Below, one piece after another: positions 6,385 to 33,852 of a stretch of 64,000 bases of DNA. Both the position numbers and the translations under genes were made by a program. The notes beneath the pieces were generated by a model. The model searched no databases and had not been told where the DNA came from. It saw only the letters and a program-made list of their open reading frames with translations. Positions within the stretch are counted from its first letter, which is position 1, and each line of letters begins with the position of its first letter. Source of the DNA: a virus; the IMG/VR virus record IMGVR_UViG_3300027906_002394, positions 18,961-82,960 of that record, one strand, 5' to 3'.

Positions 6385-7136
6385 TGAATGTAGCAATTAT
6401 TGGTTATGGGTTTTGTGGTAAAGCAACCGAGAGAATTCTAAAAAAGGTTGCCGGAATAAAAAGAATTCAAATTCAAGACCCCAAGTATAATAAAAAAATA
6501 TCTCCAGATGAGTGGGATATGATTAGGTATGCTTTTGTATGTGTGCCTACCCCCTTAACCAAAAACATGAGTATTATGGATCATTGGTATGAAGGTGATT
6601 TGTTTGATATGTCCATTATAGAAGAAGCAATATCTACTATACCGAACAATGTAATAACAGTTATTCGTAGTACCATTGGCCCAGAATCTATAAAGAAAAA
6701 TTGGGTTCATTGGCCAGAGTTCTTGCGAGAAAGTCATTGGGAAGAAGACGCGGATGATAAGTCTATCCCTATTATTATTGGTGATGGAAACCAAGAGATG
6801 TCAGATTGGTTCCCAGACCGACATACAATTTTTACTACTGCTAAAACAGCAGCGATGTATAAGTTGTCTAGGAACGCGATGTTAGCTGCTAAAGTAACTC
6901 TCGCCAACTACATTCAGAGAGTTTGTCAAGAGTATGATACCGATTATATTGATGTAGCACAGTTGTTAAAGGAACACGCGAATCTTGGAACCTCTCATTG
7001 GGAGGTGCCAGGCCCAGATGGTGATTATGGGTTTGGTGGTTCTTGTTTTCCCAAAGATACAACCCATCTTGCTTCGCTAACAGGTGGACACAATATATTT
7101 GATTATGTTTTGAGGTGTAATGAACGAGATCGCTAA
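6384..7136 (+). CDS. UDP-glucose/GDP-mannose dehydrogenase-like protein, short form
   Basis: This protein has 250 residues. The N-terminal NAD-binding motif is IIGYGFCGKA, followed by CVPTPL and RSTIGPES, all typical of nucleotide-sugar 6-dehydrogenases. GFGGSCFPKD near residue 225 carries the catalytic cysteine. Family members usually have 390-450 residues. This one stops soon after the active-site loop and lacks the C-terminal UDP-binding domain, so it may use another partner or substrate. A second, longer family member lies at 20926. It overlaps the first radical SAM gene by 17 nt. Confidence 0.8.
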   Translation: MNVAIIGYGFCGKATERILKKVAGIKRIQIQDPKYNKKISPDEWDMIRYAFVCVPTPLTKNMSIMDHWYEGDLFDMSIIEEAISTIPNNVITVIRSTIGPESIKKNWVHWPEFLRESHWEEDADDKSIPIIIGDGNQEMSDWFPDRHTIFTTAKTAAMYKLSRNAMLAAKVTLANYIQRVCQEYDTDYIDVAQLLKEHANLGTSHWEVPGPDGDYGFGGSCFPKDTTHLASLTGGHNIFDYVLRCNERDR

Positions 7137-8397
7137 ATACTTAGACGATATAACCAGAAGAAACAATGCAATAGGTAAAGGTTTCTGTGTATTGAAGTGG
7201 TGGCACTTAGAAATGCACTTAGGTACAGGTAACTATCATTCCTGTTTTCATTGTCCCCAACAAAATCTTAAACTTGATGAAGATATGCACAACACTCTTC
7301 ACAAGATGCAACAAAGAAAGACCATGTTAGAAGGTGGTAGACCAGATGAGTGTTCTTATTGTTGGAAGGCGGAAGATAGTGGCGCTGTAAGTCCTAGAAC
7401 AACATTGTCTTCCATATACACTCACATGGAAGAGGATATTATAGAAACAACTGCTAAATTGGATTGGGATGATTATGTATATCCAAAATATTTGGAAATG
7501 AGTTTTTCTAATACATGTCAAATGAAATGTTCTTATTGCGCTCCCTCTTTGAGTTCTACCTTATTACAGGAAATCAAAAAGGAAGGGGCATACCCATTAT
7601 CAGACCCAGAGAATCGCGGTCAATACGAATTAAATGGTACTGAAGAACTTTATAAGGATGATGATAACCCTCTTCTGGATAAGTTCTGGGATTGGTTTGA
7701 TGAAGCGAGAAAACATCTTGATACATTGAGAATTACAGGCGGAGAACCTTTATTACACAAGAGTACTTTCGAGATGATGGATAGATTGCGTGGGGAGAGT
7801 ATTAACTTCCATGTAAACAGCAATCTATCAGTTTCTAATAGAAGAGTGACAGAAGCATGTAACTTATTACCAGCGAAGTCTAAGATATATGCTAGTGTTG
7901 ATACATTTGGACAACAGGCTGAGTGGATTAGACATGGACTTAATTGGGACTTGTTTGACCAAAATGTTCTTACTGTTATTAATCATAAAATCCCATTGAG
8001 TTTTATGACAACATTTTGTTTATTAAGTATACCAAGATTTAAAGACTTTTTGTATTATGTTATACAGTTAAAAGATATTGGGGATGTTTTGATTGATACA
8101 CCATTTATGACTAATCCCCCACACCTGTCTTGTCTTATAATGGATGATGATATGAGGGAAACATTAGAAGATAGTTACCAGTTTATGTCATATAATAAAG
8201 AATTCAATCACGCGGAAGTTGTAAAGTTTGAAAGATTACTTAAATGGGTAGATGCAAATAGGTTTACTGGAGAACGCCTAAATAGTCATAGAAAAGATTT
8301 TAAAACATTTGTCGATGAACATGACAAACGCAGAGGCACGGATTGGCACAAAGCGTTTCCAGAGTTGACATATTTTTATGAGTTATGTGATGTCTAA
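7120..8397 (+). CDS. Twitch-type radical SAM protein A (SCHHP-type clade)
   Basis: This protein has 425 residues. The radical SAM cysteines are C133, C137 and C140 (CQMKCSYC), and RITGGEP follows as the SAM-binding GGE motif. Upstream, C23, C42, C45 and a CxxC at C78/C81 in a YCW.xED context could bind an auxiliary iron-sulfur cluster. It is the first of seven related radical SAM genes in the operon. It groups with the next two by its N-terminal pattern (FC..KW, then Cys/His pairs) rather than the PW.H pattern of the later four. The reaction is unknown. Confidence 0.85.
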   Translation: MNEIAKYLDDITRRNNAIGKGFCVLKWWHLEMHLGTGNYHSCFHCPQQNLKLDEDMHNTLHKMQQRKTMLEGGRPDECSYCWKAEDSGAVSPRTTLSSIYTHMEEDIIETTAKLDWDDYVYPKYLEMSFSNTCQMKCSYCAPSLSSTLLQEIKKEGAYPLSDPENRGQYELNGTEELYKDDDNPLLDKFWDWFDEARKHLDTLRITGGEPLLHKSTFEMMDRLRGESINFHVNSNLSVSNRRVTEACNLLPAKSKIYASVDTFGQQAEWIRHGLNWDLFDQNVLTVINHKIPLSFMTTFCLLSIPRFKDFLYYVIQLKDIGDVLIDTPFMTNPPHLSCLIMDDDMRETLEDSYQFMSYNKEFNHAEVVKFERLLKWVDANRFTGERLNSHRKDFKTFVDEHDKRRGTDWHKAFPELTYFYELCDV

Positions 8398-9772
8398 ACC
8401 TAATGAATTCTGGATTGAACAACTAAAACAGAAAAGAGAAAAGATTAATCAAATTAGTCCTTCTTTTTGTTCTGCTAAGTGGTTACAGACTACTCTGTAT
8501 TTGCAGAATGGTTATAATCACTCATGTCACCATCCTTCACCACATAAAATACCTGTGGAAGAAGTATTAGAGAATCCAGCAGCTCTTCATAATAGTAAGT
8601 ATAAGAAACAACAAAGAATTAAGATGCTCAATGGTGAGAGACCTAGTGAGTGTGATTACTGTTGGAGAATAGAAGACCAAGGTAAGGGACACTTCTCTGA
8701 CCGTCATTATAAGACTGCTGATTGGTGGTCATGGGATAAGGTTGATGTTATTGCAACCGACAACCCAAGTAAAGATGTGTATCCAACATATCTAGAAGTA
8801 TCGTTCTCAAACGCATGTAATTTCGCGTGTGCTTATTGTTCACCAGAGATAAGTTCTGAGTGGATGAAAGATATAGAAAAGAATGGTGACTATCCTGTGG
8901 AGTTTGGTTCTGGTAATTTAGACTATTTAAAGTCTGTGGAAAAGTTTCCATATAAACACTCTGACCCGAACCCATATGTTGATGCATTTTGGAAATGGTT
9001 TCCAGAAGCACTTCCTCATCTAAGAGTATTTCGTATTACTGGTGGTGAACCCACTATGAGTAAAGATGTGTGGAAAGTAATAGATTACATATATGATAAT
9101 GCACAACCAGAACTGTCTATTGCAATTAATAGTAATCTTGGTACAGACCCAAGACTTATACAGAGACTTGTTGACGCATGTAACAAATTAAAAGACAAAG
9201 TTAAACAAATTGAGATATATACAAGCTGTGAAGCAACTGGAGAACAAGCAGAATATATTAGAGATGGATTAGACTATGATTACTGGCGTGGTAATGTAGA
9301 GAAGGTTTTATCAGAGACAGATGCTAATGTAGCAATGATGACTACATTAAACATATTGAGTATGACTACATTTGAGAACTTCATTGAAGACATAATGCAG
9401 TTAAGAATCAAATATAATAAAGATTTAGCAAATAACAGAATACCGTTAAGTATAAACTATTTAAGATTCCCGCCTCATTTACAATGTACTCTATTGGATA
9501 GAAATACTAGAATATCCTATGCATCTGACTATGAGTTAACCGCGAAGATTTGGTTGAAATATAATTCACCAGACAAGTTCGCAAGAATTTATTTGGAAGA
9601 GTATGACCAGATACAGAGGTTCTGCGAATACCTTAGGCAAGAACATAAAGGTGCTGAAAAATATAGAGCAGACTTTGTAAATTATATAAAAGCCTACGAT
9701 ATCAGAAGGTCGAAAAACTTTAGCAAAACTTTTCCAGAATATAAACATTTATTGGAGTGGTGGGATGCCTAA
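8378..9772 (+). CDS. Twitch-type radical SAM protein B (SCHHP-type clade)
   Basis: This protein has up to 464 residues; an ATG at 8390 is an equally good start. The radical SAM triad is C147, C151 and C154 (CNFACAYC), with RITGGEP downstream. The N-terminal region has C31, then SCHHPSPHKIP, then CDYCW, matching protein C closely. A shared EATGEQAEYIRDGLDY stretch and C-terminal RR..KNFSKTFPE pattern mark the family. It overlaps the genes on both sides. It probably acts on a peptide or sugar substrate made nearby; this is inference from context. Confidence 0.85.
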   Translation: MSYVMSKPNEFWIEQLKQKREKINQISPSFCSAKWLQTTLYLQNGYNHSCHHPSPHKIPVEEVLENPAALHNSKYKKQQRIKMLNGERPSECDYCWRIEDQGKGHFSDRHYKTADWWSWDKVDVIATDNPSKDVYPTYLEVSFSNACNFACAYCSPEISSEWMKDIEKNGDYPVEFGSGNLDYLKSVEKFPYKHSDPNPYVDAFWKWFPEALPHLRVFRITGGEPTMSKDVWKVIDYIYDNAQPELSIAINSNLGTDPRLIQRLVDACNKLKDKVKQIEIYTSCEATGEQAEYIRDGLDYDYWRGNVEKVLSETDANVAMMTTLNILSMTTFENFIEDIMQLRIKYNKDLANNRIPLSINYLRFPPHLQCTLLDRNTRISYASDYELTAKIWLKYNSPDKFARIYLEEYDQIQRFCEYLRQEHKGAEKYRADFVNYIKAYDIRRSKNFSKTFPEYKHLLEWWDA

Positions 9773-22258: not shown

Positions 22259-23102
22259 ATTAGTTGCATATGGATGTTCACATACTGGCGGTAATGAGTT
22301 AGCTGACCACATTGTTCTTAAACAACCAAGAGAAAAAGTTGACATAGTAAAATCTAGCTATGGTCAAGGAAATTGGGATAAGATTTTTGATTATTTTGGT
22401 TTTGATTCTGACCCAATGGATGAGATGGAGTTTGATATTTTTCGGTATATTGATATTACCAGAATTGAAGAACTTCATTGTGGTGAGGATTTAAATCGCT
22501 CTTTGAGTTGGGTTAGATATCTTGCTGAAATGCGTGGGTTTTCTCATTATAAGAATAGAGGGTATGGTGGTGCTTCATTAGAACATTGTCTTTTTTTCTT
22601 AGAAAATGATTTGATGAATAGAGAAGTAAGTTTAGATTTAGACGAAATCATTGTTCAAGTGCCACACCCATATAGATGGTTATCATTTAAACATGATGGA
22701 GAATTTACTACATGGAGTCCAAACCAAGTATTCACTCTTCCTATAGGTTCCGATGGAACTACATATGGAACAAAACCAGATATTGATTCCTTCCGAACAC
22801 ATGAGTTAAATATCTATAATATTACTTGGAGATATTACAAGTCAATGAAACAACTTAAACAACTTGGTGCCAACTTTTTCTTTATAGAAAAGACTCCAGA
22901 AAACATAAAAAATGATTTATATCTTGACTGTGATGAAATCCCTAGTTTTGAATGGGTAGAATATTGTTGGAATTGGATTATTAAAAATTGTATTAAAATT
23001 GAAGGTTGTTATGATACCGATGATAAACATGGTTGGGGTCACTATGGAACAGATGTACACTATGATATTGCGAGAGATTTAAATGATAAGTTGGGGAATT
23101 AG
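22251..23102 (+). CDS. SGNH/GDSL-hydrolase-like protein (1)
   Basis: This protein has 283 residues. The N-terminus reads VAYGCSHTGGNEL, where GCSHT stands where the GDS nucleophile block of SGNH hydrolases would be. A later RGYGGASLEH fits the Gly-containing second block, and a C-terminal WGHYGTDVHYDIA may supply the catalytic Asp/His. A related protein lies at 25024. SGNH enzymes remove or transfer O-acyl groups on glycans, which would suit this operon. Activity is inferred only. Confidence 0.5.
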   Translation: MTRLVAYGCSHTGGNELADHIVLKQPREKVDIVKSSYGQGNWDKIFDYFGFDSDPMDEMEFDIFRYIDITRIEELHCGEDLNRSLSWVRYLAEMRGFSHYKNRGYGGASLEHCLFFLENDLMNREVSLDLDEIIVQVPHPYRWLSFKHDGEFTTWSPNQVFTLPIGSDGTTYGTKPDIDSFRTHELNIYNITWRYYKSMKQLKQLGANFFFIEKTPENIKNDLYLDCDEIPSFEWVEYCWNWIIKNCIKIEGCYDTDDKHGWGHYGTDVHYDIARDLNDKLGN

Positions 23103-24498
23103 TGCTTGTACACATGACGCTTCTTTAGCGGTTGTTAGAGATGATGAGATATTGTTTGCCTCTCATAGTGAGAGATTTAGCGGATATAAAAATGATGCTT
23201 TTCTGAATCCAGAGATTATCATGGAAGCGAAAAAGTATGGTGAACCCGATTATGTTTATTGGTATGAAAATCCTTGGTTAAAATGGACAAGGAAGAAATA
23301 CGCAAAACAACAAAGACCTTGGTTAAGTCCTAGAAAATATTTAAAACACTTTGGAATCAAGGCACCCTATTATACTACGCACCATAAAGCACATGCAGCT
23401 GCTGGGTATTATACTTCACCCTTTGATAGTTCCGCGATATTAGTCATTGATGCTATTGGAGAATGGACTACCACATCTATATGGAAGGACATGAAATGTA
23501 TCTGGACTTCTAAGTATCCAGACTCATTAGGGTTGTTCTATTCCGCGATGACAGATAGAATTGGATTGAAAGCAAATGAAGATGAGTACATCCTTATGGG
23601 TATGTCTGCTTATGGTGACCCCGATAGATTTTATGATGACATTAAACCATTACTAAAACAGAACCTACATAGAGGATGTAAGTGGTGGAACCCAGATTTA
23701 AAAGAAGAAGATTACTTTGATGTCGCAGCTGCTACACAGAAAGTCTATGAAGAACAATTTGGAAAACTGCTATTTACAACTGCGAGATTAACAGACCAAA
23801 CCAATCTGGTTTTTATGGGTGGGTGTGCTTTAAATTGTTTGGCGAATAGAATTATACCACAGTATTTTGCTAATCATTGGATTATGCCAAATCCAGGCGA
23901 TGCTGGTTCTTCTATTGGTGCGATTGCAGCTAGGGAACATAAAAAGTTGAAATGGAAAACACCGTATCTTGGATATAATATAGAAGGCGGATATCCAACT
24001 AGTGATATACTAGCAAATCTTGTCGCATTGAAGATATGTGGTGTCGCAAATGGTAGGGCGGAGTTTGGGCCGAGAGCTTTGGGTAATAGAAGTTTACTCG
24101 CAGACCCAAAAGGTTCTCAAATGAAAGATGTCGTTAATAAGATTAAAAAGAGACAGGAGTTTAGACCCTTTGCACCAGTTATATTAGAATCCGAAGTACA
24201 CAAGTATTTTGATGTACCAGAAGGATTTCAATCACCGTATATGCAACATGTCGTTAGATGTAAAGAACCAGAACTGTTTCCTGCTATAGTACATAAGGAT
24301 GGAACCAGTAGAGTTCAGACTGTCAATGATGAACAACATAGTGGGTTGACGCGGTTGTTACAAAGATGGAAAACATATAGTGGTCATCCCATCCTTCTAA
24401 ATACGAGTTTGAATATTAAAGGCGAACCAATAGTCAATGATGAAAAAGATGCAGCTAGGTTTGAGAAGAAGTATGGAGTTAAGGTGTGTGTAAGATAG
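23083..24498 (+). CDS. NodU/CmcH-family carbamoyltransferase
   Basis: This protein has 471 residues. GISACTHDASLAVV at the N-terminus, MGMSAYGDP, GGCALNCLANR and the C-terminal GRAEFGPRALGNRS are hallmark motifs of O-carbamoyltransferases. These move a carbamoyl group from carbamoyl phosphate, through carbamoyl-adenylate, onto a sugar or antibiotic hydroxyl. It is somewhat shorter than the usual 550-600 residues but contains both the N-terminal and C-terminal domains. It overlaps both neighbours. It strongly suggests that the operon's product carries a carbamoylated hydroxyl. Confidence 0.9.
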   Translation: MISWGISACTHDASLAVVRDDEILFASHSERFSGYKNDAFLNPEIIMEAKKYGEPDYVYWYENPWLKWTRKKYAKQQRPWLSPRKYLKHFGIKAPYYTTHHKAHAAAGYYTSPFDSSAILVIDAIGEWTTTSIWKDMKCIWTSKYPDSLGLFYSAMTDRIGLKANEDEYILMGMSAYGDPDRFYDDIKPLLKQNLHRGCKWWNPDLKEEDYFDVAAATQKVYEEQFGKLLFTTARLTDQTNLVFMGGCALNCLANRIIPQYFANHWIMPNPGDAGSSIGAIAAREHKKLKWKTPYLGYNIEGGYPTSDILANLVALKICGVANGRAEFGPRALGNRSLLADPKGSQMKDVVNKIKKRQEFRPFAPVILESEVHKYFDVPEGFQSPYMQHVVRCKEPELFPAIVHKDGTSRVQTVNDEQHSGLTRLLQRWKTYSGHPILLNTSLNIKGEPIVNDEKDAARFEKKYGVKVCVR

Positions 24499-27700: not shown

Positions 27701-28360
27701 ATGTTTACACATATTGACGAAAAACACGATTTTCCCCAGTTAATGAGGGAGAATTTTGAAGGAAAAAGGACATATGTAACGGAAAATGGTGATAGATACC
27801 CTTCTATCACCACCGTTCTTGGATATAAGATAAAACCCGCTATAAAAGCATGGAGAAAAAAGGTAGGAGAACAGACCGCGAACAAAATATCGCGTCAATC
27901 GTCTGTTCGGGGAACCAAAATTCATGGTGTTTGCGAGGATTATCTTAATAATAAGGAACTTGATACTGAAATGTTGTCCTTTGTAGAGGAAGATATGTTT
28001 GATAACATGCGCCTTTACCTTGATAAAATAGACAACATTCACGCGATTGAACAATTTTTGTACAGCGACCATTTAAGGTTGGCTGGTCAAGCGGATTGTA
28101 TCGCGGAATTTGAGGGAAAATTGTCTATTATTGACTTTAAAACCTCTGCTAAAAGGAAAACCAAGTCATATATAAAGAATTATTTCGCTCAATGTGCTGG
28201 TTATGCCATCATGTTTGAGGAAAGAACAGGAATACCTATCACAAATTCAGTAATTATCATTGGTGTAGCGAATGAAGAACCACAATTATTCATTGAACAT
28301 CGTGATAATTATACAGAATACTTGTTAGAATGTCGAGATTTATACGAAAATAACGCTTGA
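27701..28360 (+). CDS. PD-(D/E)XK nuclease, RecB/Cas4-like
   Basis: This protein has 219 residues. RGTKIHGVCEDYL places H75 and E79 in the first nuclease helix. LAGQAD gives D132, and IIDFKTS gives D145-x-K147, the catalytic DxK. QCAGYAIMFEE is the following conserved helix of RecB-like nucleases. It is probably a DNA exonuclease used in phage recombination or host DNA breakdown. It is followed immediately by the tmRNA promoter, whose -35 overlaps the last codons. Confidence 0.82.
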   Translation: MFTHIDEKHDFPQLMRENFEGKRTYVTENGDRYPSITTVLGYKIKPAIKAWRKKVGEQTANKISRQSSVRGTKIHGVCEDYLNNKELDTEMLSFVEEDMFDNMRLYLDKIDNIHAIEQFLYSDHLRLAGQADCIAEFEGKLSIIDFKTSAKRKTKSYIKNYFAQCAGYAIMFEERTGIPITNSVIIIGVANEEPQLFIEHRDNYTEYLLECRDLYENNA

Positions 28361-28392
28361 CTTCTGGCCCATCTTATACTATAATATAAATA
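28357..28392 (+). promoter_or_regulatory. Overlapping sigma70 and late promoters for the tmRNA
   Basis: TTGACT at 28357-28362, 17 nt, and TATAAT at 28380-28385 form a sigma70 promoter. The last T of the -10 starts TATAAATA at 28385-28392, an exact T4-type late promoter. The tmRNA could therefore be made both early and late in infection. Confidence 0.7.
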
Positions 28393-28668
28393 TAACTTGA
28401 CTCTATGAAACGAATTGAAAGGTTGACAGGACGGGGGTGCGATTCCCCCCGCCTCCACCAATTTATCCTTATAGACCCGACTAAGGGGGCGAATAGGATC
28501 GACTGGGACTTATTAGAGGAGTGGAGAGTTCGGAGAGGAAGCTGCCGTAAGTGCAACGCAACCATAAACGCAGAAGATAATACTGCTTATGAGGACTACG
28601 CTTTAGCGGCGTAGAATCGCTCGGGGTTTTGGAGACAGTTCCTAGCACCAGAATACTGTCTCGTTTTT
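28393..28668 (+). ncRNA. ssrA: Circularly permuted (two-piece) tmRNA
   Basis: The 3' tRNA-like part comes first: T-arm GGGGG/CCCCC around a TGCGATT loop, then CGCCTCC and ACCA ending at 28460. The 5' end follows at 28485 as GGGGGCG, which pairs with CGCCTCC to give a 7-bp acceptor stem with one G-U pair. GGATCGACTGGG then resembles the tmRNA D-arm region. The tag frame starts at GCA 28570 after TAAAC and reads AEDNTAYEDYALAA before TAG 28612-28614, ending in the usual ALAA protease signal. This order and the intervening segment 28461-28484 match alphaproteobacterial split tmRNAs. It would rescue stalled ribosomes and tag the products for ClpXP. Exact mature ends are not known. Confidence 0.92.
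28632..28668 (+). terminator. Rho-independent terminator of the tmRNA gene
   Basis: GAGACAGT at 28632-28639 pairs perfectly with ACTGTCTC at 28655-28662, and GTTTTT follows. The 8-bp stem and T run lie about 18 nt after the tag stop codon. Confidence 0.85.
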
Positions 28669-28693
28669 ATCTCATAAAGAGAAGGAGGAAGAT

Positions 28694-28804
28694 ATGTGGT
28701 TAATTACAGGACTCGTAATAGGAGTTGTAGTTGGTGCATGGATTAAAGACCGAAAAGGTTGGTTGGATTTTCTTGACACATTATTTGACAAGATACCATT
28801 CTAA
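28694..28804 (+). CDS. Small single-span membrane protein
   Basis: This 36-residue gene starts at ATG 28694 with a very strong ribosome site, AAGGAGGAAG. The N-terminal half is hydrophobic (WLITGLVIGVVVGAW), followed by a basic KDRKG and an amphipathic end. It lies between the tmRNA terminator and the lysin gene. A holin-like or membrane-regulatory role is possible because of the neighbouring lysin, but it is not shown. Confidence 0.65.
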   Translation: MWLITGLVIGVVVGAWIKDRKGWLDFLDTLFDKIPF

Positions 28805-28815
28805 TCTAGTACACT

Positions 28816-29370
28816 ATGTACAGTTGGTTTTTAACTGCCATCTCAGCGGTTACATTAGTATTGTTCCCGCTAAGCGCTGACAACCACTTTGTTAACGACA
28901 AGAATTTCCTAGAATATGAACAGGAATTAATTCATAATCAAGAAGAAATTGCTTGTCTTGCCGTTAACATTTACCACGAAGCGAGGGGCGAAAGTGAAGA
29001 AGGAAAACTTGCAGTAGCTTTCGTAACTCTCAATCGTGTTAAGAGTGACGCATATCCAGATACAGTTTGTGGAGTTGTTTATCAAGGAAAACACAAACGG
29101 TCTTGGAGAGATAATGAAACGCTGGTTCCAGTAAGACATGGATGCCAATTCAGTTGGTACTGTGACGGTAAATCCGACATGGTACAAGATTTCGACTCAT
29201 ATGAGGAAATCGTTGAATTGTCAATGAATGTCTGGTATGGAAGGTTTGAAGATAACACAGATGGAAGTTTGTTTTATCACGCAGATTATGTAGACCCAGC
29301 ATGGGCGCAACACATGGCAATGACAAAAAGGATAGATAATCACATTTTTTACACGATGTCGAGTTATTAA
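28816..29370 (+). CDS. SleB-like cell wall hydrolase (endolysin candidate) with N-terminal signal anchor
   Basis: This protein has 184 residues. Residues 1-21 are hydrophobic and act as a signal or anchor. CLAVNIYHEARGESEEGK around residues 47-64 is the signature of the cell wall hydrolase SleB family, with E55 the likely catalytic acid. LNRVKSDAYPDTVCGVVYQ and CQFSWYCDG complete the domain. It would cleave peptidoglycan in the periplasm. The preceding 36-residue membrane protein could assist. The start has no clear ribosome site. Confidence 0.85.
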   Translation: MYSWFLTAISAVTLVLFPLSADNHFVNDKNFLEYEQELIHNQEEIACLAVNIYHEARGESEEGKLAVAFVTLNRVKSDAYPDTVCGVVYQGKHKRSWRDNETLVPVRHGCQFSWYCDGKSDMVQDFDSYEEIVELSMNVWYGRFEDNTDGSLFYHADYVDPAWAQHMAMTKRIDNHIFYTMSSY

Positions 29371-29372
29371 TT

Positions 29373-30293
29373 ATGTCTGATAAGGTTCACAATTTTATTG
29401 TTACAGGCGGATGTGGATTTATAGGTTCACATTTAGTAGAAGCATTAGTTCTTCACGGGCAGAATGTTCTTGTAATTGATGATATGAGAACTGGCAGTTT
29501 TAAACTCGATAGTAAACATGTGAAGTATCTACATCAAGATGTTGCATCAGCAATCCCAGTTGGGAAGTTTGACGCAATATTTCACCTAGCCGCCACGCCT
29601 AGAATTAGGTTATCACAGAAAGACCCCTTTGGTACTATCACAAATAACCTTAATTCAACAATGGTAGTTTCTGAATACGCGAGAAGAGAACGAATTCCTT
29701 TGTTTTTCGCTGCCTCTTCTAGTACTCAGTTTCTTCATCATCACGATAATCCTTATACATTTTCTAAGTGTGTAAGTGAAGAAATCTTAGAACTTTACCA
29801 CAAACAATTTAACTTGGAATATCATATGTTATATTTCTATAATGTATATGGCCCAAGGGAAGCTGACTATGGAGAATATAGTACGGTAATAAGAGCATTT
29901 AAGAAATGCATCCAAAAGAATGAACCTCTTAGGATATTTGGTAGTGGTAAAAAAGAAAGAGATTTCACTCACATCCATGATGTAATCGATGGTATTCTAA
30001 AGTTGTTAACTACAAAGAGAAAACCAAAACATGTACATCTTGGTTCTGGTAATCCAGTTAGTATAATGGAAATAGCAAACGCATTTAATCATCATGCTGT
30101 TCACGAATTCGATAAGAAGGGTGAAGCAGAAGTGACCGAATGTGAAAATCCTTATATAGAACCTCAATACGATGTTATTGGATATATCAAAAAATGGAAG
30201 AGTGATTATGAGGAAGAAGCTATTTTAAGAAAAATAAACAAAGATTTTCGTAATGTGGAAGAAAAATATGCCAAAATTGATAGTGGACAATGA
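29373..30293 (+). CDS. NAD-dependent nucleotide-sugar epimerase/dehydratase (extended SDR)
   Basis: This protein has 306 residues. TGGCGFIGSH at 11-20 is the NAD-binding motif, and NPYTFSKCVSEE near 130 provides the catalytic Tyr-x3-Lys. FYNVYGPRE and FTHIHDV follow as in GalE-like enzymes. It would epimerise or dehydrate a nucleotide sugar, so it may supply the glycan operon at 3856-26180 despite the distance. It overlaps the gp33 gene by 26 nt. Confidence 0.87.
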   Translation: MSDKVHNFIVTGGCGFIGSHLVEALVLHGQNVLVIDDMRTGSFKLDSKHVKYLHQDVASAIPVGKFDAIFHLAATPRIRLSQKDPFGTITNNLNSTMVVSEYARRERIPLFFAASSSTQFLHHHDNPYTFSKCVSEEILELYHKQFNLEYHMLYFYNVYGPREADYGEYSTVIRAFKKCIQKNEPLRIFGSGKKERDFTHIHDVIDGILKLLTTKRKPKHVHLGSGNPVSIMEIANAFNHHAVHEFDKKGEAEVTECENPYIEPQYDVIGYIKKWKSDYEEEAILRKINKDFRNVEEKYAKIDSGQ

Positions 30294-30561
30294 CGAGAAA
30301 AAAGAAGAGAAGATTAGTGATGTTGCTTTGGTTACAAAGTCAGAATTTCAAACATCATCTGAATTCTCTCAGCATATAGAAAAGAAGGCTGTTTCTGCTG
30401 GAAACTATATCGATGTATTAGTCGAGTATTGTACCAAAAATGACATAGAGATTGAGAGTGTTAAAAAATTATTAACCGCATCTCTAAAAGAAAAGATAAA
30501 AGCAGAAGCAATTGGACTTAACTTAGTTAAGGGACAAAAGTCTTGTAAGTTACCTATATGA
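30268..30561 (+). CDS. 33: gp33-like late transcription coactivator
   Basis: I chose ATG 30268 (GGAAG upstream), giving 97 residues. DVLVEYCTKNDIEIESVKKL and KEKIKAEAI near the C-terminus match marine T4-like gp33 proteins as I recall them. The order 33-59-32 is that of T4. In T4, gp33 bridges host RNA polymerase and the sliding clamp at late promoters. The TATAAATA motifs across this window are the expected targets, together with a gp55 sigma factor not found here. Confidence 0.75.
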   Translation: MPKLIVDNDEKKEEKISDVALVTKSEFQTSSEFSQHIEKKAVSAGNYIDVLVEYCTKNDIEIESVKKLLTASLKEKIKAEAIGLNLVKGQKSCKLPI

Positions 30562-32313: not shown

Positions 32314-33852
32314 ATGGCAGAAATTATGGATGGAATTATATTTGGTGGACAACTAGAAGACCTTGGTGGGTCAATTCATAAAGAAGATTCAAGAAACATA
32401 TCAATAAGGCGCTCGTCTGGTGGACATAAAATTGCCACCTTTTTGAGGCAGAATGGTTATGATATTGATGTAGTAGATTATGTTCATCGTTGGACACTAG
32501 AACAATTAAAAGAATATATTAGACCAATAGCACAGGATTGTAAGTTCTTTGGGTTTGGTTCTACTTTCTTTTTAGATAGCCCAGTTGTTAAAGAACTGGT
32601 AAACTGGTTAAAGGTTCATTACCCACAAATACCGCGTGTCGCTGGTAGTCAAAATGATAGTATGCGTAGTTTAGATATGGATTGGTATGTCTATGGTTAC
32701 GGTGAAAATGCTATGTTAGAACTAATGAAACATTTTGATGGTGGCCCAGAACCGAAACATGTTGATAATATAATTAATGCCTATGTTAATTACAAATCCT
32801 TCCCTAGAGATGATTTAACAGTCTCATATCAAGAAAATGATTTTATGAACCCAAGAGAAATACTTCTTTTGGAGTTTGCTCGTGGATGTAAGTTTAAATG
32901 CAAGTTCTGTAGTTTCCCGATACTAGGTGTCAAGGGTGATTACTCTCGTACAGCAGAAAGTGTCTATGATGAGATGTTAGAGAATTATGATAAATGGGGA
33001 ACAGAACATTATATTGTCTTAGACGAAACATTCAATGATAGTCCACAGAAGATTGAGAAGTTTGCTAATGTAATAGAGAAACTTCCATTCCAACCAAAGA
33101 TGACTGCCTATATTCGTGGTGATTTAATCGCTTCGCGTCCTAAAGATTGGGATAACCTAATCAAGATGGGAATTACATCTCATTTCTATGGTATTGAAAG
33201 TATGAACCACAAGGCAGCTAAATCTGTTGGTAAGGGGATGAATACTGGTAGAATACAGGATGGACTATTAGAAGTTAAAGAATACTTTCTGAAGAATGCT
33301 GGATTTTATAAAGGTCATATATCATTAATAGCTGGACTTCCATATGAAACCATTGATAGTCTACGCGATACAGTAGATTGGTGTTCAGAATACTGGTCTG
33401 ACCAGAGTTATCATATGAATATATTGATGTTTAAGAACCTTTATAAACCTTCACTCAATCATAACTCAGAATTCGATTTACATTGGCGAGAATACGGTTA
33501 TAAGAAGACCAAATTCCCAAAAGATGATATAAAGTGGGACTTGAGTATCAATCCTTACTATAAAGTCCTCTACGACTACATGGCGACCTCTGAGGACTAT
33601 ATACAATGGAAGAATGACTATACTACCATGTATGATTGTTTTAAGTTCTGCGTGGAAGAGTTTAGTCAGGCAAAATTGAAGAATGTACTAGACCCATTCA
33701 TGTATGATAAGTTCTTTATTGACCCTAGTGTAAGTTGGGATGATTTTCAGACACAAAATCATATGGAAAGAAGAGAATCCCATATATTAGAACATGTAGA
33801 TAATTATATTAAAAAGAAAATATTATCTACCACTACCAATATTCATTTTTAG
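32314..33852 (+). CDS. Radical SAM protein with B12-binding-like N-terminal domain
   Basis: This protein has 512 residues. C192, C196 and C199 (CKFKCKFC) form the radical SAM site. The preceding 170 residues look like the Rossmann B12-binding domain of such proteins (FLRQNGYDIDVVDY, then FFGFGSTFF, then YVYGYGE), but no cobalamin His motif is seen. It differs from the seven twitch-type proteins. ATG 32314 follows the terminator T run without a ribosome site; ATG 32326 is another option. Its end overlaps the convergent tail gene by 30 nt. Confidence 0.82.
   Translation: MAEIMDGIIFGGQLEDLGGSIHKEDSRNISIRRSSGGHKIATFLRQNGYDIDVVDYVHRWTLEQLKEYIRPIAQDCKFFGFGSTFFLDSPVVKELVNWLKVHYPQIPRVAGSQNDSMRSLDMDWYVYGYGENAMLELMKHFDGGPEPKHVDNIINAYVNYKSFPRDDLTVSYQENDFMNPREILLLEFARGCKFKCKFCSFPILGVKGDYSRTAESVYDEMLENYDKWGTEHYIVLDETFNDSPQKIEKFANVIEKLPFQPKMTAYIRGDLIASRPKDWDNLIKMGITSHFYGIESMNHKAAKSVGKGMNTGRIQDGLLEVKEYFLKNAGFYKGHISLIAGLPYETIDSLRDTVDWCSEYWSDQSYHMNILMFKNLYKPSLNHNSEFDLHWREYGYKKTKFPKDDIKWDLSINPYYKVLYDYMATSEDYIQWKNDYTTMYDCFKFCVEEFSQAKLKNVLDPFMYDKFFIDPSVSWDDFQTQNHMERRESHILEHVDNYIKKKILSTTTNIHF

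What the first reader, a model, noticed from the sequence alone, without database searches (positions are those of the whole stretch)
28357..28668. Phage-encoded circularly permuted tmRNA with dual early/late promoter
The CCA-bearing 3' half precedes the GGGGGCG 5' half. The two ends pair over 7 bp across a 24-nt intervening segment, and a 14-residue tag ending ALAA closes the frame. A sigma70 promoter and TATAAATA overlap at the 5' side and a strong terminator lies at the 3' side, so the gene looks complete and active. As I recall, one-piece phage tmRNAs are known (mycobacteriophages of the Bxz1 type). A split alphaproteobacterial-type tmRNA inside a T4-like phage would be unusual. It may keep rescue and proteolysis running late in infection, or direct tagging with a phage-specific peptide.
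Basis: partly seen in the sequence, partly recalled or inferred. Interest (0 to 1): 0.93.

Follow-up and report, generated by a model that had tools for sequence, protein, structure and literature searches.

The report
Two-piece tmRNA gene in marine phage
This marine T4-like virus of bacteria carries a complete gene for the two-piece RNA that rescues stuck ribosomes; viruses like it were already known to carry such genes, but here the gene also sits behind a double early/late switch that turns out to be shared by most of its viral relatives.

Summary
Window 28399-28662 is a circularly permuted (two-piece) tmRNA gene: RF04321 113.9 bits, RF01849 90.8 bits, ARAGORN tag AEDNTAYEDYALAA. A 7-bp acceptor stem with the G:U pair of alanine tRNAs closes over a 24-nt spacer. 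The record is a T4-like marine myovirus whose closest isolates are Melnitz and the pelagiphages HTVC008M and Mosig. It is not unprecedented: all three isolates carry permuted tmRNAs, and a 2022 paper (PMC9004378) reports 53 unique two-piece phage tmRNAs, 50 from marine or aquatic phages. I therefore call it a new member of a known kind. The record encodes no SmpB, so the RNA most likely works with host SmpB, RNase P and alanyl-tRNA synthetase. What the scan adds is the promoter. A sigma70 promoter fused to the T4-type late box TATAAATA lies about 65 nt upstream of the acceptor sequence in 26 of 34 distinct phage loci, including loci in unrelated gene contexts; Melnitz has it too. That predicts supply early and late, whereas the Melnitz authors inferred early only. 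The 'strong terminator' is overstated: the hairpin is kept in relatives, but its T-run is missing in three alleles.

The parts
28357..28385 (+). sigma70-type (early) promoter TTGACT-N17-TATAAT
   Evidence: 11/12; -35 and 17-nt spacing conserved in relatives. The TGA inside TTGACT is also the stop codon of the upstream exonuclease gene.
28385..28392 (+). T4-type late promoter box TATAAATA overlapping the -10
   Evidence: enriched in intergenic DNA of the window (7 seen, 0.58 expected); conserved at about -65 in 28 of 34 phage tmRNA loci
28399..28460 (+). acceptor piece (3' half of the tRNA-like domain) with encoded CCA at 28458-28460
   Evidence: RF04321 alignment
28433..28449 (+). T arm, 5-bp stem, loop TGCGATT
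   Evidence: G-C to A-U compensatory change in 3 of 13 relatives
28450..28457 (+). 3' strand of acceptor stem (CGCCUCC) plus discriminator A; U at 28454 makes the G3:U70-type wobble
28461..28484 (+). 24-nt intervening segment expected to be removed in processing
   Evidence: sequence; 24-25 nt in close relatives
28485..28662 (+). coding piece, starting with acceptor 5' strand GGGGGCG; 3' end inferred from the terminal hairpin
28570..28614 (+). tag reading frame AEDNTAYEDYALAA plus stop TAG
   Evidence: ARAGORN
28632..28668 (+). 3'-terminal hairpin (8 bp) followed by TTTTT: tmRNA 3' helix and possible weak terminator
   Evidence: helix kept in relatives in other forms, T-run absent in L008, L016, L025
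27701..28360 (+). upstream exonuclease gene (phrog_298), conserved neighbour
28694..28804 (+). 36-aa hydrophobic ORF after AGGAGG, conserved in close relatives
   Evidence: no PHROGs match
28816..29370 (+). endolysin, cell wall hydrolase family (PF07486), conserved downstream neighbour
30253..30561 (+). gp33-like late-promoter coactivator (phrog_254), supports T4-type late transcription

Best explanation
A functional, phage-encoded, circularly permuted (two-piece) tmRNA gene of the alphaproteobacterial type in a marine T4-like myovirus. One precursor RNA is made and host enzymes trim it into an acceptor piece ending in CCA and a coding piece starting at GGGGGCG; the two stay joined by the acceptor stem (inferred from Caulobacter-type tmRNA). 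Host alanyl-tRNA synthetase charges it through the G:U pair, host SmpB delivers it to stalled ribosomes, and the tag AEDNTAYEDYALAA is added for host proteases (inferred). A composite early/late promoter should keep it expressed through infection, when host mRNA breakdown would make many non-stop messages (inferred).
For: Both covariance models over threshold; ARAGORN. Acceptor stem including G:U invariant in 13 distinct close alleles, and the U present in all 34 distinct loci counted, although the second search pattern did not require it. Two pairs with compensatory changes; 97.2% of cells paired against 37-58% when the partner is slid. Neighbourhood exonuclease - tmRNA - endolysin - epimerase - gp32 kept in relatives whose neighbours are only 46-78% identical, so the gene is old and retained. 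Homologues in Melnitz, HTVC008M and Mosig. No smpB in G000 or in 12 further phage records, with controls ringing, so host SmpB is needed. Composite promoter conserved.
Against: No expression or processing data. Plain RNA folding of the region is not better than shuffles (z 0.41), as may happen with pseudoknotted tmRNA. One outer helix pairs poorly in L028 and L029, and the middle helix of the model is mostly unpaired in the window. The phage's host and its SmpB are unknown.
Confidence: 0.86

Rival explanations
1. A decaying or passenger copy of a host ssrA, carried by chance and not functional.
For: Phages pick up host genes; no expression data.
Against: Acceptor stem, tag frame ending YALAA and CCA intact in all 13 distinct close alleles; compensatory changes; conserved locus; no bacterial genome with the same acceptor/D-region string among 84,980 species, so not a recent copy of any of those.
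Confidence: 0.06
2. A regulator or decoy: the phage tmRNA competes for host SmpB and ribosomes to inhibit host trans-translation, as reported for a molecule like the tag-less tmRNA of mycobacteriophage DS6A (PMC11915505, PMC4131195).
For: The phage lacks smpB and would compete for host SmpB.
Against: The full coding piece and tag frame are kept in all relatives seen, which a decoy would not need.
Confidence: 0.06
3. A small protein-coding gene (ATG ORF 28405-28614, 69 aa) ending in the same residues.
For: The frame is open in the window and most close relatives.
Against: The ATG is lost in L012 and L023; the frame is shifted or interrupted in L028 and L029 while tag and acceptor stem are intact; covariance models score the RNA.
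Confidence: 0.02

Closest known systems
Permuted tmRNA of Methylophilales phage Melnitz (PMC9004378; L087)
   Same: T4-like marine myovirus, alphaproteobacterial-type two-piece tmRNA, exonuclease gene upstream, composite TTGACA-N17-TATAAATA promoter, tag ending DYALAA
   Different: Melnitz has an intervening segment of roughly 140 nt and a reported glutamine riboswitch; here 24 nt and no riboswitch match
Permuted tmRNAs of Pelagibacter phages HTVC008M and Mosig (L089, L088)
   Same: Permuted form, RF04321 over threshold, exonuclease gene upstream
   Different: No composite promoter within about 130 nt upstream; shorter tags (ANFNEYALAA, GEDNFALAA)
Alphaproteobacterial host two-piece tmRNA (RF01849; Caulobacter type)
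   Same: Order of halves, acceptor stem, D-region motif, 3' helix
   Different: Lower score (90.8 bits here against 213-217 for Rhodobacteraceae loci); late-promoter box upstream; different tag
One-piece phage tmRNAs (mycobacteriophage Bxz1 type, Bacillus phage G; PMC4131195)
   Same: Phage-borne ssrA
   Different: Standard one-piece gene order (from memory and the paper; not aligned here)

Membership tests
Permuted (two-piece) tmRNA, Rfam RF04321 | Covariance model score at or above gathering threshold | tested here: met
   113.9 bits against 47
Permuted (two-piece) tmRNA, Rfam RF04321 | CCA-bearing half precedes the 5' half, joined by an acceptor stem | tested here: met
   28450-28456 with 28485-28491, 7 bp
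Permuted (two-piece) tmRNA, Rfam RF04321 | Alanine identity G3:U70 wobble | tested here: met
   28487 G with 28454 U; invariant in 13 alleles
Permuted (two-piece) tmRNA, Rfam RF04321 | Tag frame ending in a degradation signal such as ALAA | tested here: met
   AEDNTAYEDYALAA
Permuted (two-piece) tmRNA, Rfam RF04321 | Processing into two mature pieces | not testable with these tools
   needs RNA end mapping
Alphaproteobacterial tmRNA RF01849 | Model score at or above gathering threshold | tested here: met
   90.8 bits against 50
Phage-encoded tmRNA of the Melnitz / pelagimyophage group | Located in a T4-like marine myovirus related to Melnitz and HTVC008M | tested here: met
   gp6-like protein best matches Melnitz 38%, HTVC008M 37%; T4-type gp32, gp59, gp33, baseplate genes
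Phage-encoded tmRNA of the Melnitz / pelagimyophage group | Glutamine riboswitch in the 3' domain (seen in Melnitz; the paper calls it common but not defining) | tested here: not met
   no riboswitch match at gathering threshold in the window; not a defining feature, so membership is not excluded

The most novel reading that the evidence does not exclude
Marine T4-like phages have converged on, or kept, a composite promoter that fuses a sigma70 promoter to the late box TATAAATA in front of their tmRNA gene, so that the phage supplies its own tmRNA with a phage-specific tag throughout infection. This revises the published early-only view and implies that ribosome rescue is limiting during virion production.
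Probability: 0.45. Interest if true: 0.5.

Novelty: new member of a known kind. Interest (0 to 1): 0.36.

Why it matters
Phage tmRNAs are among the few RNA genes with which a virus may take over translation quality control. The gene itself adds one more clade to a published set. The conserved composite promoter gives a concrete, testable prediction about when phages need ribosome rescue, and cultured relatives (Melnitz, HTVC008M) exist in which to test it.

Tried and rejected
Thermodynamic folding alone gave no signal, and RNAalifold on A1 did not recover the tmRNA fold; both were set aside in favour of covariance models and named-pair counts. Nearest bacterial source: an exact pattern found nothing in 84,980 species; a looser T-loop pattern gave scattered alphaproteobacteria and others; a BLAST of 385 genomes of the class matched mostly the T-arm/acceptor stretch alone; the host was not identified. 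The protein-coding reading was rejected. BLAST hits to Streptomyces, Pseudomonas and other phages were short T-arm matches and were not pursued.

Full report
What is there. ARAGORN calls one permuted tmRNA in the window, 28365-28705 on the + strand, with tag AEDNTAYEDYALAA. Rfam gives RF04321 tmRNA_permuted at 28399-28614 with 113.9 bits and RF01849 alpha_tmRNA at 28353-28662 with 90.8 bits, both well over threshold. The acceptor strands 28450-28456 and 28485-28491 form seven pairs including the G:U wobble typical of alanine tRNAs, across 24 nt.

Which phage. The record is an 82,960-bp linear IMG/VR contig. Its genes are T4-type: gp32, gp59 helicase loader, gp33 coactivator, DNA end protector, tail tube, baseplate hub and wedge. 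A baseplate wedge protein is closest to Melnitz (38%), HTVC008M (37%) and Mosig (38%). Window G+C is 36.6%. The host is not known.

Not unprecedented. PMC9004378 (2022) described a two-piece tmRNA in Melnitz, and among 133 unique phage tmRNA structures found 53 two-piece ones, 50 of them from marine or aquatic samples. RF04321 finds permuted tmRNAs in Melnitz, HTVC008M, Mosig and Caulobacter phage CcrRogue. The tmRNA database paper PMC11915505 lists 79 phage sequences of all forms.

Conservation. Two pattern scans of IMG/VR returned 40 and 74 contigs, overlapping, of which most were confirmed by ARAGORN or Rfam. Thirteen distinct close alleles, the window's included, align over the whole gene. 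The acceptor stem and the short stem 28531-28533 with 28545-28547 never vary. The T stem has a G-C to A-U exchange in three alleles, and one pair of the tRNA-like domain's long helix occurs as U-G, U-A and A-U. 97.2% of cells are paired against 37-58% with slid partners. The compensatory evidence is modest because the alleles are close. The terminal hairpin occurs as GAGACAGU/ACUGUCUC, GGACAGU/ACUGUCC, GGGGAC/GUCCCC and GGAGAC/GUCUCC (read by eye), so the helix is kept while sequence and length change. The following T-run is present in the window but absent in L008, L016 and L025, so termination there is not a conserved property.

Neighbourhood. The order phoH - exonuclease - tmRNA - endolysin - epimerase - gp32 is kept in L028, L029 and L074, where the neighbouring proteins are only 46-78% identical. 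The gene is thus an old resident. An exact acceptor/D-region string from this family is absent from 84,980 bacterial and archaeal species genomes, so it is not a fresh copy from a sampled host.

Promoter. TTGACT-N17-TATAAT overlaps TATAAATA. TATAAATA occurs seven times in 2.9 kb of intergenic window DNA against 0.58 expected, and the phage has a gp33-like coactivator, so it is a credible late box. Among distinct phage tmRNA loci, after I removed three double-counted registers from the 37 rows, 28 of 34 have TATAAATA at -64 to -67 from the acceptor sequence and 26 of 34 have a sigma70 match of at least 10/12 fused to it. In a partly overlapping set of 18 such sites, 14 reach 10/12 against 6 of 62 other TATAAATA sites in the same DNA (Fisher P 5e-8, which treats related loci as independent and so overstates). 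The arrangement recurs where none of the tested neighbours (phoH, exonuclease, endolysin, epimerase, gp32) was found, as in L046 and L071, and in Melnitz. It is absent in HTVC008M, Mosig and some freshwater or other groups. In the window the TGA of TTGACT is also the stop codon of the exonuclease gene, which contributes to its conservation there. PMC9004378 reports an early promoter for the Melnitz tmRNA and infers early action; the late box fused to it suggests expression in both phases. This is inference from sequence.

Mechanism. Shown: gene structure, conservation, absence of smpB in this contig and in 12 further phage records including ones of 137-161 kb. Inferred: processing by host RNase P and 3' nucleases, charging by host alanyl-tRNA synthetase, delivery by host SmpB, tagging for host proteases, expression through infection. 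The tag's C-terminal YALAA is invariant among the close alleles while its first residues vary (AEDNT, AENNT, AEEDT, ANDNF). That would be consistent with a kept protease signal and a freer adaptor-binding part; this is not tested.

Verdict. A genuine, probably working two-piece tmRNA, new as a member of a published group. The composite promoter is the part worth following.

Noticed in passing
L087 1564-1706 (Melnitz MZ577097): The intervening segment between the two halves of the Melnitz tmRNA is about 140 nt and holds an ATG frame after GGAGAAGT (MFKWLSKTRLVVITRDYFRERNRKADAKIPKYLSGTRSVYDG..., translated by eye), possibly a small gene inside the permuted tmRNA.
   Followed up: no
L002 1472-1790 (Caulobacter phage CcrRogue): A permuted tmRNA (RF04321 88.2 bits) that is unannotated in the record and missed by ARAGORN; short similar T-arm matches occur in many other Caulobacter phage records.
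   Followed up: partly
L109 2007-2294: A permuted tmRNA plus tRNA-Thr and tRNA-Arg on a 7.9-kb contig binned as a Halieaceae MAG (MED611); possibly a phage contig in the bin.
   Followed up: no
L019 and L013, about 0.9 kb upstream of the tmRNA: These tmRNAs lack a nearby composite promoter, but a TTGACA-TATAAATA composite lies 970 and 908 nt upstream on the same strand.
   Followed up: no
window 7120-9772, 23083-24498, 29373-30293 and 32314-33852: Several metabolic-type genes in the phage: three radical SAM proteins, a carbamoyltransferase and an NAD-dependent epimerase/dehydratase.
   Followed up: partly
L060 12054-12372: A permuted tmRNA with the composite promoter on a 306-kb viral contig, that is, probably in a jumbo phage.
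   Followed up: partly
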